Notes under the pieces: generated by a model
Told to the model about the DNA's origin: nothing
Databases searched by the model: none
What the model saw: only the letters and a program-made list of their open reading frames with translations
Shown: one piece after another, positions 44,090-50,322 of the stretch
How positions within the stretch are numbered: position 1 is the stretch's first letter
How the letters are laid out: each line of letters begins with the position of its first letter
Position numbers and translations under genes: made by a program
Source: Nymphaea colorata
Taxonomy: Eukaryota; Streptophyta; Magnoliopsida; Nymphaeales; Nymphaeaceae
Direction: 5' to 3'
Assembly (NCBI RefSeq): GCF_008831285.2
Contig: NC_045140.1
Span: forward strand, 3,141,528-3,205,527
DNA length: 64,000 nucleotides

Positions 44090-44280
44090 TTCACAAGCTC
44101 CAAAGACATTAATTACATCATAGAAACCTAAGAGACTTCACATATTACAAAGATATTAACTACAACATAGAATCCTAGGAGACTTCACATATTACAAGGA
44201 TATTAACTTCAACATAGAATCCTAGGTGACTCTTCACATGTTACAAGGACATTAAATATCTTAACACATTCTACAAGGAG
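44090..44280. repeat. Tandem repeat, period about 47 bp, roughly four copies
   Basis: Units begin TTCACA at 44090, 44137, 44184 and 44233. They share ATTACAA-GA-ATTAA, ACATAGAATCCTAGG and GAGAC or GTGAC. Copies 2 and 3 are nearly identical and the outer ones are diverged. No coding content. Confidence 0.8.
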
Positions 44281-44640
44281 GTGAAATCCTAAGAGACTCC
44301 TCTTCAACGTGCTGGTGAAGGATTTATATTTTAACAGCTTCAACTTAAAAAGTGTCAGAATTAACTAGACAAGTGGCCTGGGAACAATGATACATTTGAG
44401 TTCGAAAAATTAGGATGATCATATGTCTTGCTCTCATACTATCTAATGTTCTGGCTTCTGGCTTGGAGTCCTTTTCAAGTGTGAAACACAGCTGACTACA
44501 GGATGGACAAGATTTGCAGAACCTAGCACTTACGTTAGTTTTAGGTGAGAGGCCATTACAGTTAATGCCCAAATCATGTCCAATACTCAGGGCCCGTTTG
44601 ATTGCCCAGAAAAAATTGGTGGAGCGGTTGAAATACGTAT

Positions 44641-44740
44641 GGGCGGGTGAAATTTCACCCGCCCGACACAAAAACCATCAAACATGGTGAAATTTCACCC
44701 CGTTTTCGATAAAGTGAGCGGGTGAAATTTCACCCGCTCA
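44641..44740. repeat. Perfect GTGAAATTTCAC-centred palindromes near the left TIR
   Basis: A perfect 24-bp palindrome at 44641-44664 has left half GGGCGGGTGAAA. A perfect 26-bp palindrome at 44715-44740 has left half TGAGCGGGTGAAA. Shorter relatives are at 44683-44697 (TGGTGAAATTTCACC) and about 44774-44789. Regularly spaced inverted words beside a TIR are candidates for transposase-binding sites; this is inference. Confidence 0.85.
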
Positions 44741-44822
44741 AAAGTCCGAGCTCGCAGCTCAGACTTTTGATCGCGTGAAATTTCACCTGATCGACCGCTT
44801 TCAATTTTTCGCTCTCACGCCA

Positions 44823-44895
44823 CGAGCATGTGGCCGAGACCGCGGAGGGGTTTCGCCCCGAGCATGTGGCCGAGACTGTAGAGGGGTTTTACAGC
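44823..44895. repeat. 36-bp tandem duplication ahead of the PARN-like fragment
   Basis: CGAGCATGTGGCCGAGAC occurs at 44823 and 44859, in each case followed by a GAGGGGTTT word. The period is 36 bases (12 codons), so the plus-strand frame leading into the PARN-like fragment is preserved across it. Confidence 0.8.
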
Positions 44896-44907
44896 AGGAG
44901 CACGAAG

Positions 44908-45120
44908 GAATGGAGGGTGAAGCAGGTAGTGTGGTCGAACTTCGATTCCCTCCTGGGGGAGGTGAATGAGCGCATTCGCGATGCCGATTTCATATCCATC
45001 TCAGAAATTGGGGCTTTACTCTTCTCCGTGGCACCCGATTCTTCCCATTGACACTGACGAGATGGCCTATAGCAAAGCGAAGGACGCGCGGAGAGATTCG
45101 AGCTCAAATTGCAAAGAAAA
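44908..45120 (+). pseudogene. Captured fragment of a PARN-like (CAF1-family) poly(A) ribonuclease gene
   Basis: The frame encodes EWRVKQVVWSNFDSLLGEVN, then ERIRDADFISIS, then after a shift near 45003 LYSSPWHPILPIDTDEMAYS and KAKDA. This is the N-terminal block of plant PARN-like proteins (…VKQV…SNF…DF…APWH…ID…YSKAK…). PARN-family nucleases shorten poly(A) tails. The block that should carry the first catalytic acidic pair reads ISE-IG, altered as in some plant PARN-like proteins or damaged here. The fragment ends before the rest of the nuclease domain, so no functional enzyme is encoded. Confidence 0.7.
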
Positions 45121-45151
45121 GTTAGAGCTCGAACATAATCTCTACTGCAGG

Positions 45152-45256
45152 ATGCTCAAAGATACATCAAAATGGGTTCTATGGGGAGACTTTGAATCTC
45201 TATGCACGATGCCCAAAAGCGGTCGCCCTCCTGATAATTTCACCTTCCCTCTTGTC
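45152..45256 (+). pseudogene. Captured PPR gene fragment 1
   Basis: MLKDTSKWVLWGDFESLCTM and PKSGRPPDNFTFPLV reproduce the end of one pentatricopeptide motif and the start of the next; PDNFTFPLV is a hallmark of PLS-class PPR proteins. It lies in the same open frame as the second half of the PARN-like fragment (44966-45310). That frame therefore fuses two unrelated genes before stopping at 45308-45310. The sequence just before it, CTACTGCAG, resembles an intron acceptor. Confidence 0.75.
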
Positions 45257-45580
45257 TCTTCCTCCTCCCTCCCCACAGTCGACATCATCGGTAGAACCAG
45301 CACACTCTGAGAACAAGCTTTTGATGAGATTGGGGGATGAGGCAGTTCAATATTCCTAGGGGCACTAGCGAGAGGATTGCCTCCAGATGTTTGGGTGCTC
45401 AGGAGCACCATAAGCCTGGCACCCGGATTCGGAGCAGGTGAGGCAGAGGACGGGATGTGGGGAGCAGTTGGTTGGGGAAGTTGTGGAGAGAAAACATGAT
45501 CAGGAGGGAGCGGGAATTTGCTGAACGGTGGCCTCAATGGCGGGTGGGAGCTCTGAAGCGAAAACTCGCGTTTGAGGATG

Positions 45581-45676
45581 AAGTTGGTCAGGTTTTATGC
45601 CACTTGTGACGAAGTCCGAAGTGCAGAACACTTGTTTGACGAAATGCCTGAAAAGGACACTTTTGCTTGGACTTAA
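45581..45676 (+). pseudogene. Captured PPR gene fragment 2
   Basis: KLVRFYATCDEVRSAEHLFD followed by EMPEKDTFAWT and a stop (TAA 45674-45676) is an L/S-type PPR motif. In intact PPR proteins this kind of segment usually precedes the PDNFTFPLV segment, whereas here it lies 325 bases after it. The pieces were therefore rearranged, or come from different repeats or genes. PPR proteins bind organellar RNA; nothing functional remains here. Confidence 0.8.
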
Positions 45677-45698
45677 GCCGAATCAATTTACAATTTAC

Positions 45699-45995
45699 AA
45701 TTACTGCTGCATTTGTTTCATTTACGTCTCGATGGGGCGCAGCAGTTTGTGCACAAACTCAGCAATCAAGCAATCCAACTATTTGGCTAACGGAGTGGGC
45801 TCCAGAGCCCCGTGATGTTTACTGGAATAATCTTGCAATACCATTTGTTGAACTAGCAGTTCGCCGGTTAATCATCTCTGTTGCAGTCTTCTTTCTTACA
45901 TTTTTTTTTATGATCCCAATTGCTTTTGTGCAATCACTTGCCAACATCGAGGGGATTGAAAAGGTTTTTCCTTTTCTAAAGCCAATAATAAAACA
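45699..45995 (+). pseudogene. Captured exon of an OSCA/CSC1-like (DUF221) calcium-permeable channel gene
   Basis: The frame encodes AAFVSFTSRWGAAVCAQTQQ, NPTIWLTEWAPEPRDVYWNN, LAIPFVELAVRRLIISVAVF and FMIPIAFVQSLANIEGIEKV, one of the best conserved stretches of OSCA/CSC1-like osmosensing channels. It includes the start of a transmembrane helix. It ends at ACA|GTGAGT (donor GT at 45996-45997), so an authentic exon border was captured. No other exon of the gene is present. The frame has no internal stop over about 99 codons, suggesting recent capture. Confidence 0.85.
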
Positions 45996-46302
45996 GTGAG
46001 TATTTTTATGGATGATGTATGCGACTGTTGAATTATTCTTTTCTGTAGCTTCTTGTTTTTTTCACTTGTGCAATGTTTTCAGTGTTATTATGAGTTTGCA
46101 AGTTGTAACCAAGATAGTACAATAGTAGCAGTAGCAGTAATAGAAGAGGTTGTACAAGGATGGATATTATGGATTTGTTTTTGATGCTTTATCATCGCTG
46201 TCAGTAGCATAATTTCATGATATAGCAGAATCAACTGCAAATTAAAGTTGGTTTATGTTTCCACAGATGCTGTAGACAAGGGTACCAAAGGGTCAGTTTC
46301 AG

Positions 46303-46437
46303 CATGCACAGGAAGCATGTAAATTTCTGGCGACTACAAGACATTCTCATGCACAGGAAGCACGTAAATTTCTGGCGACTACAAGACATTTTCATGCACA
46401 GGAAGCACGTAAATTTCTTTCTGTGCATCAAACAGGG
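46303..46437. repeat. 45-bp tandem repeat, three copies, near the right end of the chimeric element
   Basis: CATGCACAGGAAGCATG/CACG followed by TAAATTTCTGGCGACTACAA starts at 46303, 46348 and 46393. The third copy is truncated after TAAATTTCTT. The unit is 45 bases, so all three copies also read in frame on the minus strand (KFTCFLCM-SCSRQ), a consequence of the period rather than evidence for a protein. Confidence 0.9.
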
Positions 46438-46622
46438 TTAAATTTACCACGTTAAATTCTTCATGTGCAAACAGTATTAAATTTACCACGTCAAATTCTT
46501 CTTGTGCATCAAACATGGCCTCAGATTGAAAGAGGGAGAAATTTCATCCCGTAAATTTTTCCAGAAAAATTTACCATGGTAAATTTACCACGTTAAATTC
46601 TTCATGCGCATCAAACGGGCCC

Positions 46623-47390
46623 TCAATGACATGTTCCTTAAAGAGGCTAGAATGTACCACGTTCCTTAAATGTGGAGAAAACTTGGAGATAGGCCCATGC
46701 CTAAGAGTCTAAAATATTTTGATGACCATTTATGCCTTAGTCTTATTTTACTAGCATCCCGGGTTTGTAGTCCTTCCGAGGAGCTAAAAGATGCTGCCCA
46801 CTGGATAGAGGGGGATCCAGCGATCGAAGCACTGTGGTTAGTTTTCGGGTTGGATCACACAAAGTCTAGGTTGAACCTTTCCACTTCTCCGTTAGGAAAG
46901 AAACATCACAGCTTACACCAAAGTTAGAAGAACATTAGCAGTTGAGCTATCTTTGGGAACTTTGCACTAGGACAGTGTGGCACGCATACCATGAACATCC
47001 ATGAGGCCAACCAATAAGGGTTCCATCAAAACCAAATTTTTTGGCAGATGCTGAAAGCACTACACTAAGGGATTCACATCTTCCTTAATGCAGTGTTATA
47101 TGAACTCTAAGTAGCATTAGAGCTGTATTTTTCATAATGATGTCGATATAGCTTATGCTTCAAATCATAGACTTGGTAATAAATGATCAAAATTTGCTCA
47201 ATCATTTGAAGAATGGAAATATCACTTTATGAAAGATAAAACCATGCATTCTGTAGGTATGTATCAAATGCTGAATTACTACAGAAGCAAGAGTATTGCT
47301 ACATCAATATATTGAAATCAGTCAATATGTGTATGAGGAAGTTGTGTGCTTACAAGGATTATGTAACAATGAAATGATTATGTTTCCAGC
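46623..47390. other. Gene-free stretch right of the chimeric element
   Basis: No gene, repeat boundary or RNA gene recognised. Short open frames, for example 46670-46927, show no domain. Confidence 0.5.
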
Positions 47391-49054: not shown

Positions 49055-50322
49055 TGTTGACGGGTTTTGTTGTCCGGGTCCGGATCCTTACCCGATCCGG
49101 TTTGTCCTAATTAGGACTACTTATATCTCTGTAAACCCTAATCTTAGAGTTAATGAAGTTTTGAAGAGAGAGAGTGTCTGGAGGCTAGTGGGCACCAGAC
49201 CTCCTCACCCGTGGTTTTTCTTCCCTCGTGTTGAGAGTTTTCCACTTTACATCTGTGTGCTTTCTTCTACTCTCGTGCATATTTTGTTTCTACATGGTAT
49301 CAGAGCCGTCGGACTTGGAGAAAACGAAATCTGTTTTTCTAGGGTTGTGAAGTTCCAACCCTGACTGCCGCCGCTACCACCGTCGCCGTCGCTACCCCCA
49401 CCGCCGCCGCTGTCGTTGCTGCGCCGCCGCTGTCGCCGCGCCGTGACATTGTCTCCGTCGTTGCCCCACCGTGGCCGTGACCGCCGCTGCTGCGGCGCTG
49501 GTGTCGTGACTGCCGACGTCCAATGCCGACGTCTGTCGCCGACGCCTCTGCCGACGCCGACTCTGTCGCCGACGCCTACACCGACACCGTCGTCTGTTCT
49601 CGGCGTGCGCGGCCAAGCGCCGCCCTCTGCTTCCGCCGAGCACTGCTTCCTCTTCTCTAGGTTACTGTTGTTGTGTGTGTTCTTTGGCAGCCACTTCTAA
49701 CTGGTGATCATGGCTGACTCGTCTTTTTCTTCCGTCAATACTAATCTACCTGATGTTGTGTCTGCGCGGTACCACCATTCAACTTACCAAGGAGAACTAT
49801 TCACGATGGTCTGCTGCGATTACTATGGGGATTGCTGGGCGAGGACGCATTACCTATGTGAATGGGAGAAAGGTTGAACCTGCTGCAGATAGTCTGGCTT
49901 GGGATACATGGTTTCTTGAAGACAACCAGGTAAAAACCTGGATTGTTAATTCGGCGTCCCCAGATATCCAACCCCTCATTCTTCGTAAGAAGACTGCAAG
50001 GGATATGTGGGTTATTTTGGAGCAGATGTATGGTCAGAAGAAAAGGAAAGTTCGCGTGTATCAACTTCTGAAGGATGTGTATTCCCTGCGCCAAGGTGCT
50101 CTCTCGGTTGCAGACTTTTATGCAGCATTAAAATCTAAGTGGGAGGACCTTGACTATCATTCTGATATTACATGGAGGTGTCCTCACGACCAGATGCAGT
50201 ATATGACTGATAAATGGGAGAACAGGGTATTCCTTTTCTTATCCGGACTGAATGATGACTTTGAAAATACCAGGAGTCAGATTCTTAAATCTGACGAATC
50301 ATTTAGTATTGAAGATGTCTAG
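49055..50322 (+). mobile_element. Ty1/copia retrotransposon fragment: LTR, PBS and broken gag
   Basis: A 240-bp LTR starts TGTTGACGGG (49055), holds a TATA-like CTTATATCTC (49119-49128), and ends TTCTACA (49294). It is followed at once by the PBS TGGTATCAGAGCC (49295-49307, initiator tRNA-Met). A gag leader with ATG at 49710 opens MADSSFSSVNTNLPDVVSA. The conserved gag frame IQLTKENYSRWSAAITMG, KTARDMWVILEQMYGQKKRK and VFLFLSGLNDDFENTRSQIL then runs in another frame from about 49765 to TAG at 50320. A frameshift near 49760 and the lack of zinc knuckle, pol and a 3' LTR make it defective. The GC-rich segment 49360-49640 is simple CCG/CGC-rich leader sequence. Confidence 0.88.

What the first reader, a model, noticed from the sequence alone, without database searches (positions are those of the whole stretch)
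44590..46622. Gene-capturing chimeric transposon with three unrelated host gene fragments
Exact 13-bp TIRs (GGGCCCGTTTGAT) and flanking TCA duplications delimit a 2033-bp segment. It carries, all in the same orientation, pieces of a PARN-like ribonuclease gene, PPR gene(s) and an OSCA/CSC1-like channel gene, with no transposase. TIR type is known for PIF/Harbinger; gene capture is well known for Pack-MULEs and Helitrons, and less so for elements of this type. That the pieces were acquired by the transposon is inferred.
Basis: partly seen in the sequence, partly recalled or inferred. Interest (0 to 1): 0.85.

Follow-up and report, generated by a model that had tools for sequence, protein, structure and literature searches.

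The report
Transposon assembled from five gene pieces
A small plant jumping gene has collected pieces of five unrelated host genes, one of them backwards, and relatives elsewhere in the genome carry some of the same pieces in other combinations, so the history of the gene theft can be followed step by step.

Summary
The 2033-bp element (44590-46622) is real. It has perfect 13-bp TIRs, a TCA duplication, and relatives that share both ends in the same 407.8-Mb genome. PIF/Harbinger is supported: a transposase-plus-Myb element has the same TIR and a TTA duplication, and 17 of 21 copies with matching duplications have TTA/TAA. The content was misread. There are five host segments, not three: PARN, PPR gene B, an antisense piece of a WD40 gene (probably VARICOSE/EDC4-like), PPR gene A, and OSCA exon plus intron. 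Likely parents match at 91-96%; for PPR-A a pre-deleted copy fits best. The WD40|PPR-A junction is spanned at ten other loci, so the composite was copied after assembly. Relatives carry only the left set (PARN, PPR-B) or only the right set (WD40, PPR-A, OSCA), so this element is probably a join of two earlier gene-carrying elements. Pack-PIF elements are published (PMC8903248): this is a new, unusually composite member of a known kind. Direct gene-gene joints and the lack of alignable family ends around three parents favour template switching over neighbouring insertions, but one TIR-like 13-mer beside the PARN parent keeps the question open.

The parts
44587..44589 (.). Target-site duplication TCA, left copy (right copy 46623-46625)
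   Evidence: Direct reading; TCA also flanks L071 and, as TGA in element orientation, C9_3341
44590..44795 (+). Left end: TIR GGGCCCGTTTGAT and subterminal region with GTGAAATTTCAC palindromes
   Evidence: 91-92% identical to left ends of C11_5973, C6_15546, C6_21994; first 198 bp 79.5% to transposase-bearing element L059
44820..45105 (+). PARN-like ribonuclease piece, beginning with a 36-bp tandem duplication
   Evidence: 91.4% over 44856-45105 to a locus with three CAF1 matches at C3:4868393-4872953; repeat D7
45106..45155 (+). Jumbled stretch with a short PPR-B repeat
   Evidence: 24-bp extra match to PPR-B
45156..45256 (+). Piece of PPR gene B
   Evidence: 95.1% to C2:29979540-29979642, inside a 189-aa PPR reading frame
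45257..45277 (.). Short stretch at the joint; its last about 12 bp are shared with relatives C1_21347 and C5_4619
45278..45560 (-).
   Evidence: 94.7% to C3:26313594-26313876; family name weak (PF16529 E 0.15 and 0.011)
45559..45695 (+). Piece of PPR gene A with an internal deletion
   Evidence: 94.8% (45559-45674) to the C10 PPR gene (566-aa frame) and 95.5% (45562-45695) to C2:9460832-9460965, a copy with the same deletion
45698..46305 (+). OSCA/CSC1 exon followed by intron
   Evidence: 96.1% to C9:14068141-14068745; 6oce 1.2e-50
46324..46411 (+). Two tandem copies of a further OSCA-intron bit; about 290 bp of parental OSCA sequence is missing just before
   Evidence: 88% and 86% matches to L039; deletion seen against C1_21347 and the parent
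46406..46622 (+). Right end with subterminal repeats and TIR
   Evidence: 86-89% to more than ten other right ends; last 179 bp 79.8% to L059

Best explanation
It is a non-autonomous Pack-type element of the PIF/Harbinger superfamily, moved in trans by a PIF-type transposase that recognises its ends. An ancestral element of the family picked up genomic DNA pieces of a WD40 gene (inverted), a PPR gene copy and an OSCA gene, joined directly to each other. The composite then transposed, and its copies suffered different internal deletions. A second line of the same family carried PARN and another PPR gene. The element here is most likely a join of the left part of the second type to the right part of the first. 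Capture was most likely by copying during repair of a break or gap inside the element, with switching to unrelated templates. Shown here: copies of the composite at different sites, DNA-level capture of OSCA, five likely source loci, a shared junction, different deletions. Inferred: the transposase acting in trans, template switching, and joining of two elements.
For: Both ends match a 4342-bp element with the same TIR, a TTA duplication, and DDE_Tnp_4 (1.4e-9) and Myb/SANT (8.8e-12) frames. Of 23 distinct fetched elements with both TIRs, 21 have equal duplications: 17 TTA/TAA, 3 TCA, 1 CAA; 2 do not. ZmPIFa TIR GGGCCCGTTTGTTT shares the first 11 bases. Likely parents: PARN 91.4%, PPR-B 95.1%, WD40 94.7%, PPR-A 94.8% (95.5% to a pre-deleted copy), OSCA 96.1%. 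The OSCA piece keeps intron, so capture was from DNA. The WD40|PPR-A junction is spanned by matches in ten other loci and reads alike in the three compared; five of the ten have both TIRs, three of these being segmental duplicates with the same flanks. Shared derived changes: five in OSCA for this copy and C1_21347; three for C1, C5 and C13. Left set only: C9_3341 has PARN plus a later part of PPR-B. Right set only: C1 and C5 share a different left-end-to-WD40 junction. No alignable family end in the fetched 9.9-kb stretches around the PARN, WD40 and OSCA parents (3 of 3; ends of this element; ends of 13 family elements).
Against: A TIR-like 13-mer with two mismatches, extended by about five matching bases, lies 164 bp from the PARN piece in its parent locus (L043 4593-4605), and another with two mismatches lies about 2.4 kb from the OSCA piece (L039 7638); about 0.3 such sites are expected in 30 kb at the window's rate. 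The first could be an end remnant, which would fit neighbouring insertion. Microhomology at the only primary gene-gene joint tested is 3 bp (P 0.058). The C1 PPR|OSCA joint has 1 bp (P 0.45). The stronger cases (6, 5 and 4 bp) are rearrangements within one locus. In the WD40 piece the copies share few derived changes: 2 same-base sites for self and C5, 1 for C1 and C5, none for self and C1. No empty site was found. A single larger ancestor that lost parts would explain the left-only and right-only relatives as well. The PARN match at the parent locus contains a TGA, so that locus may itself be damaged.
Confidence: 0.8

Rival explanations
1. Capture by neighbouring insertions: two elements flanking each gene piece were mobilised together and the inner ends were lost, as proposed for Pack-TYPE elements.
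For: Proposed for Pack-CACTA and inferred for other Pack-TYPE elements including Pack-PIF (PMC8903248 section 9). The joining of the left and right sets here could be such an event. A TIR-like 13-mer (two mismatches) stands 164 bp from the captured PARN segment in its parent locus.
Against: The WD40 and PPR-A pieces abut with no terminal sequence between them; one piece is inverted; the stretches round the PARN, WD40 and OSCA parents hold no alignable family end. Flanking elements could have excised or decayed since.
Confidence: 0.3
2. One large ancestor carried all five pieces and each relative is a deletion derivative; no joining of two elements was needed.
For: Internal deletions are frequent: the PPR|OSCA joint differs in self, C1, C5 and C13, and this copy lost about 290 bp of OSCA.
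Against: C1 and C5 share about 50 bp before the WD40 piece that this copy lacks (by eye); the PARN-carrying elements C9_3341, C1_8831, C8_20322 and C11_7897 are a nearly uniform group (95-99% identical).
Confidence: 0.35
3. A chance mosaic or assembly artefact bounded by unrelated inverted repeats.
For: Perfect 13-bp inverted pairs are common in the window (178).
Against: 444 exact TIR copies with 0 reversed controls, both ends shared by many elements with their own duplications, and the WD40|PPR-A junction spanned at ten other loci.
Confidence: 0.01
4. The chimeric reading frames are a functional new gene kept by selection.
For: A 115-aa OSCA frame and a 150-aa antisense frame are open.
Against: Captured PARN and PPR sequence is spread over several frames with stops; fetched relatives lack various of these parts. 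No test of selection or expression was made.
Confidence: 0.03

Closest known systems
Pack-PIF elements (Gisby and Catoni 2022, PMC8903248; passages and section 9 seen)
   Same: Non-autonomous PIF-type TIR elements with internal host gene pieces; maize cluster 18 has a 163-bp and, in four copies, a further 58-bp gene piece
   Different: Five source loci, one inverted, WD40 and PPR pieces joined directly, and blocks shared between several sub-types; probably a water lily rather than a grass
Pack-MULEs (search listings and passages in PMC8903248; that they can combine several loci is recalled)
   Same: Composite of several gene pieces in a non-autonomous TIR element
   Different: 3-bp duplication and 13-bp TIR; transposase relative is DDE_Tnp_4 plus Myb, not MULE
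Metazoan Pack-TIRs, gap-filling and FoSTeST models (PMC8277862; passages seen)
   Same: Template switching with short microhomology proposed; multicopy elements arise by later transposition
   Different: The passages seen speak of one parental copy per element; here several unlinked loci lie in one element
Maize ZmPIFa and mPIF (PMC6327408; Table 2 row and background passages seen)
   Same: TIR starts GGGCCCGTTTG, TTA duplication for ZmPIFa; PIF elements pair a Myb/SANT protein with a transposase
   Different: mPIF is 364 bp; no gene cargo was mentioned in the passages seen

Membership tests
PIF/Harbinger superfamily | 3-bp TTA/TAA target-site duplication | tested here: met
   Met for the family: 17 of 21 fetched elements with equal duplications are TTA/TAA. 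This copy itself is TCA, as are L071 and L020
PIF/Harbinger superfamily | TIR of GGG...GTTTG type | tested here: met
   First 11 bases equal the ZmPIFa TIR
PIF/Harbinger superfamily | Related element coding DDE_Tnp_4 transposase and Myb/SANT protein | tested here: met
   L059, both ends matching at about 80%; its transposase match contains a stop
Pack-TYPE element | Non-autonomous, TIR-bounded, contains host gene DNA | tested here: met
   No transposase found in the 5 frames scanned; five host segments with likely parents
Pack-TYPE element | Mobile after capture | tested here: met
   Composite copies with different flanks and duplications (C3 TCA; C1, C6_11858 and C13 TTA)
Pack-MULE | 8-11-bp duplication and MULE-type ends (recalled) | tested here: not met
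   3-bp duplications; PIF-type partner
Helitron | No TIR, no target-site duplication, TC...CTRR ends (recalled) | tested here: not met
   TIRs and TSD present
PIF/Harbinger superfamily | Excision and insertion by its transposase | not testable with these tools
   Needs an assay

The most novel reading that the evidence does not exclude
This PIF family works as a combinatorial gene-shuffling system in an early-diverging flowering plant: pieces of unlinked genes are copied in by template switching, without elements flanking the donor segments, and the resulting elements exchange whole modules with each other, so new gene combinations arise by element-to-element joining.
Probability: 0.4. Interest if true: 0.65.

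Novelty: new member of a known kind. Interest (0 to 1): 0.48.

Why it matters
How cut-and-paste transposons take up DNA from unlinked genes is unsettled (PMC13317346, passage, says an undiscovered mechanism may exist). Here likely donors of five pieces, several intermediate elements and a transposase-bearing relative lie in one genome, so junctions and donor loci can be compared directly with the neighbouring-insertion and template-switching models.

Tried and rejected
Three pieces in one orientation: rejected (antisense WD40 piece). PPR-A and a 'PPR-C' as two genes: rejected, since both lie in one 566-aa reading frame on C10 and the joint is a deletion shared with copies L060, L064 and L065. 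Empty site: joined flanks gave no intact site; only 40 of 482 candidates were scored and a high-copy repeat in the left flank dominated, so the test is weak. VARICOSE/EDC4 name: PF16529 found no match genome-wide at E<=0.001, and nothing rang in the controls; E 0.011 on a partial spliced translation, where the best hit was a WDHD1 WD40 model at 5.5e-6, below its curated cut-off; single exons gave nothing over a cut-off and a PDB search of one exon nothing convincing. The name rests on recall. Rfam and tRNA scans of the window: nothing. A wider capture count in the family was not obtained: of 13 exact TIR pairs (plus then minus, within 8 kb) among the first 100 of 444 sites, 5 were fetched (L059, L068-L071); of the four without transposase, one gave a Pfam domain (LRR, L070) in the 5 frames of theirs that were scanned; searches with L071 and L069 did not complete. 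Rows left out: one search shows only alignments over 90 bp; drop matches confined to the ends; one search did not print unequal flank pairs with two or more mismatches. One search lists these: 10 unequal pairs in all, of which 8 are alternative pairings inside elements that also have an equal pair; L006 and L070 remain. Absence in print is not claimed.

Full report
Observation. The window lies at C3:3141528-3205527 of a 407.77-Mb, 783-contig genome. The size fits Nymphaea colorata (409 Mb, 14 pseudo-chromosomes; PMC7015852, passages); this name is an inference. The segment 44590-46622 has perfect 13-bp TIRs and TCA on both sides. The TIR 13-mer occurs 444 times in the genome, its reversed control never. 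Of 178 perfect 13-bp inverted pairs 200-3000 bp apart in the window, two have equal 3-bp flanks.

Superfamily. Element C2:1501421-1505762 (L059, 4342 bp) has the identical TIR and a TTA duplication. It holds a DDE_Tnp_4 frame (1.4e-9) and a Myb/SANT frame (8.8e-12), and matches our first 198 and last 179 bp at about 80%. Other DDE_Tnp_4 hits lie about 1 kb from copies of our right end, at two places on C6 and one on C15. Among fetched loci, 23 distinct elements with both TIRs (up to two mismatches each) were found: 21 have equal 3-bp flanks (17 TTA/TAA, 3 TCA, 1 CAA), 2 do not (an outer pair in L055 and 8 alternative inner pairings are left out). Three of the 23 are segmental duplicates of one insertion on C13. 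ZmPIFa has TIR GGGCCCGTTTGTTT and TTA (PMC6327408 Table 2, passage).

Cargo. Matches to likely parents, in element coordinates: PARN 231-516, 91.4% over 267-516, to a locus with three separate CAF1 matches on C3, one holding a TGA. PPR-B 567-667, 95.1%, to C2. WD40 gene 689-971, antisense, 94.7%, to C3. PPR-A 970-1106, 94.8% over 970-1085 to an open PPR gene on C10, or 95.5% over 973-1106 to a C2 copy with the same internal deletion. OSCA 1109-1716, 96.1%, to an OSCA gene on C9, plus two short repeats of a later intron part. The OSCA piece runs from exon into intron, so DNA, not mRNA, was the source. For the stretch 207-1106 all 28 candidates were scored; for the whole element 40 of 890, so copy counts are lower bounds.

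Relatives. The joint between the antisense WD40 piece and PPR-A is spanned by matches at ten other loci and reads the same in this copy, C1 and C5. Of the ten, C1, C6_11858 and three C13 loci have both TIRs; C5 has none within two mismatches; the other four were not fetched. OSCA follows in C1, C5, the C13 loci and, over 42 bp, C6_11858; the PPR|OSCA joint differs between self, C1, C5 and the C13/C6_11858 group, as expected of separate deletions in copies of one longer composite. C9_3341 and three near-identical copies (95-99%) carry PARN; C9_3341 also carries a later part of PPR-B, directly shown only there. C8_4970 carries PARN exon and intron with an internal deletion. C6_10707 carries a longer PPR-A piece with a 294-aa frame. 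C2_4852 shares one block of about 185 bp with C11_5973 and one of 177 bp with C13, and has an LRR piece.

History. C1 and C5 share their own left-end-to-WD40 junction, absent here, whereas here PPR-B abuts the WD40 piece through a short pyrimidine-rich stretch (by eye). The simplest reading is that this element joined a PARN/PPR-B element to a WD40/PPR-A/OSCA element. A single large ancestor with later losses remains possible. Derived changes shared against the parent: OSCA, 5 sites for self and C1, 3 sites for C1, C5 and C13; WD40 piece, 2 same-base sites for self and C5, 1 for C1 and C5, none for self and C1. The junctions, more than the substitutions, show common descent.

Mechanism. Pack-TYPE elements were proposed to capture DNA when two neighbouring insertions move as one (PMC8903248 section 9). 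Here the WD40 and PPR pieces are joined without terminal sequence between them, one piece is inverted, and the 9.9-kb stretches around the PARN, WD40 and OSCA parents contain no alignable family end (3 of 3). Against this, L043 has a TIR-like 13-mer with two mismatches 164 bp from the PARN segment, with about five more matching bases on its inner side, and L039 one about 2.4 kb from the OSCA segment; chance gives about 0.3 per 30 kb. On balance this favours template switching during repair, as proposed for animal Pack-TIRs (PMC8277862, passages), most clearly for the WD40|PPR-A joint and least for PARN. Microhomology was tested at five resolvable joints: 3 bp (P 0.058) at WD40|PPR; 1 bp (0.45) at the C1 PPR|OSCA joint; 6, 5 and 4 bp (0.003, 0.007, 0.022) at three joints within single loci. 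The last three support microhomology-mediated rearrangement, not capture itself. The five were those I could resolve, not a random sample, so the pooled value is not used.

Function. I found no sign of a working gene: PARN and PPR sequence is spread over several frames with stops, and fetched relatives lack various parts. Selection and expression were not tested. Effects through antisense RNA on the WD40 gene are possible and untested.

Verdict. A genuine multi-gene Pack-PIF element. The kind is known; the number of donors, the inverted piece and the surviving intermediates make it an informative example.

Noticed in passing
window 44190-44337: Part of a high-copy repeat (97-99% matches; several pairs about 4.95 kb apart, as LTR pairs would be) lies just left of the element.
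   Followed up: no
L070 (C2:4852408-4854044): Another family element with an LRR fragment (PF00560 3.5e-7) and blocks shared with two different element types; its flanks TTA and TGA do not match.
   Followed up: partly
L058 3963-4202 (C8:3119737 region): Family element with a possible acyl-CoA-binding protein piece (PF00887 E 8.1e-4, below the curated cut-off).
   Followed up: no
L060, L064, L065: Three PPR gene copies share one internal deletion with 6-bp microhomology; L064 also carries family right-end repeats, so it may be another gene-carrying element.
   Followed up: partly
L043 4593-4605: TIR-like 13-mer (two mismatches) 164 bp from the captured segment in the PARN parent locus; possible decayed element end.
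   Followed up: partly
L044, L045, L046 (C13): Three composite elements with the same or nearly the same flanks, pointing to segmental duplication of one insertion.
   Followed up: yes
window 49708-50322: 204-aa frame resembling a copia-type gag (recalled).
   Followed up: no
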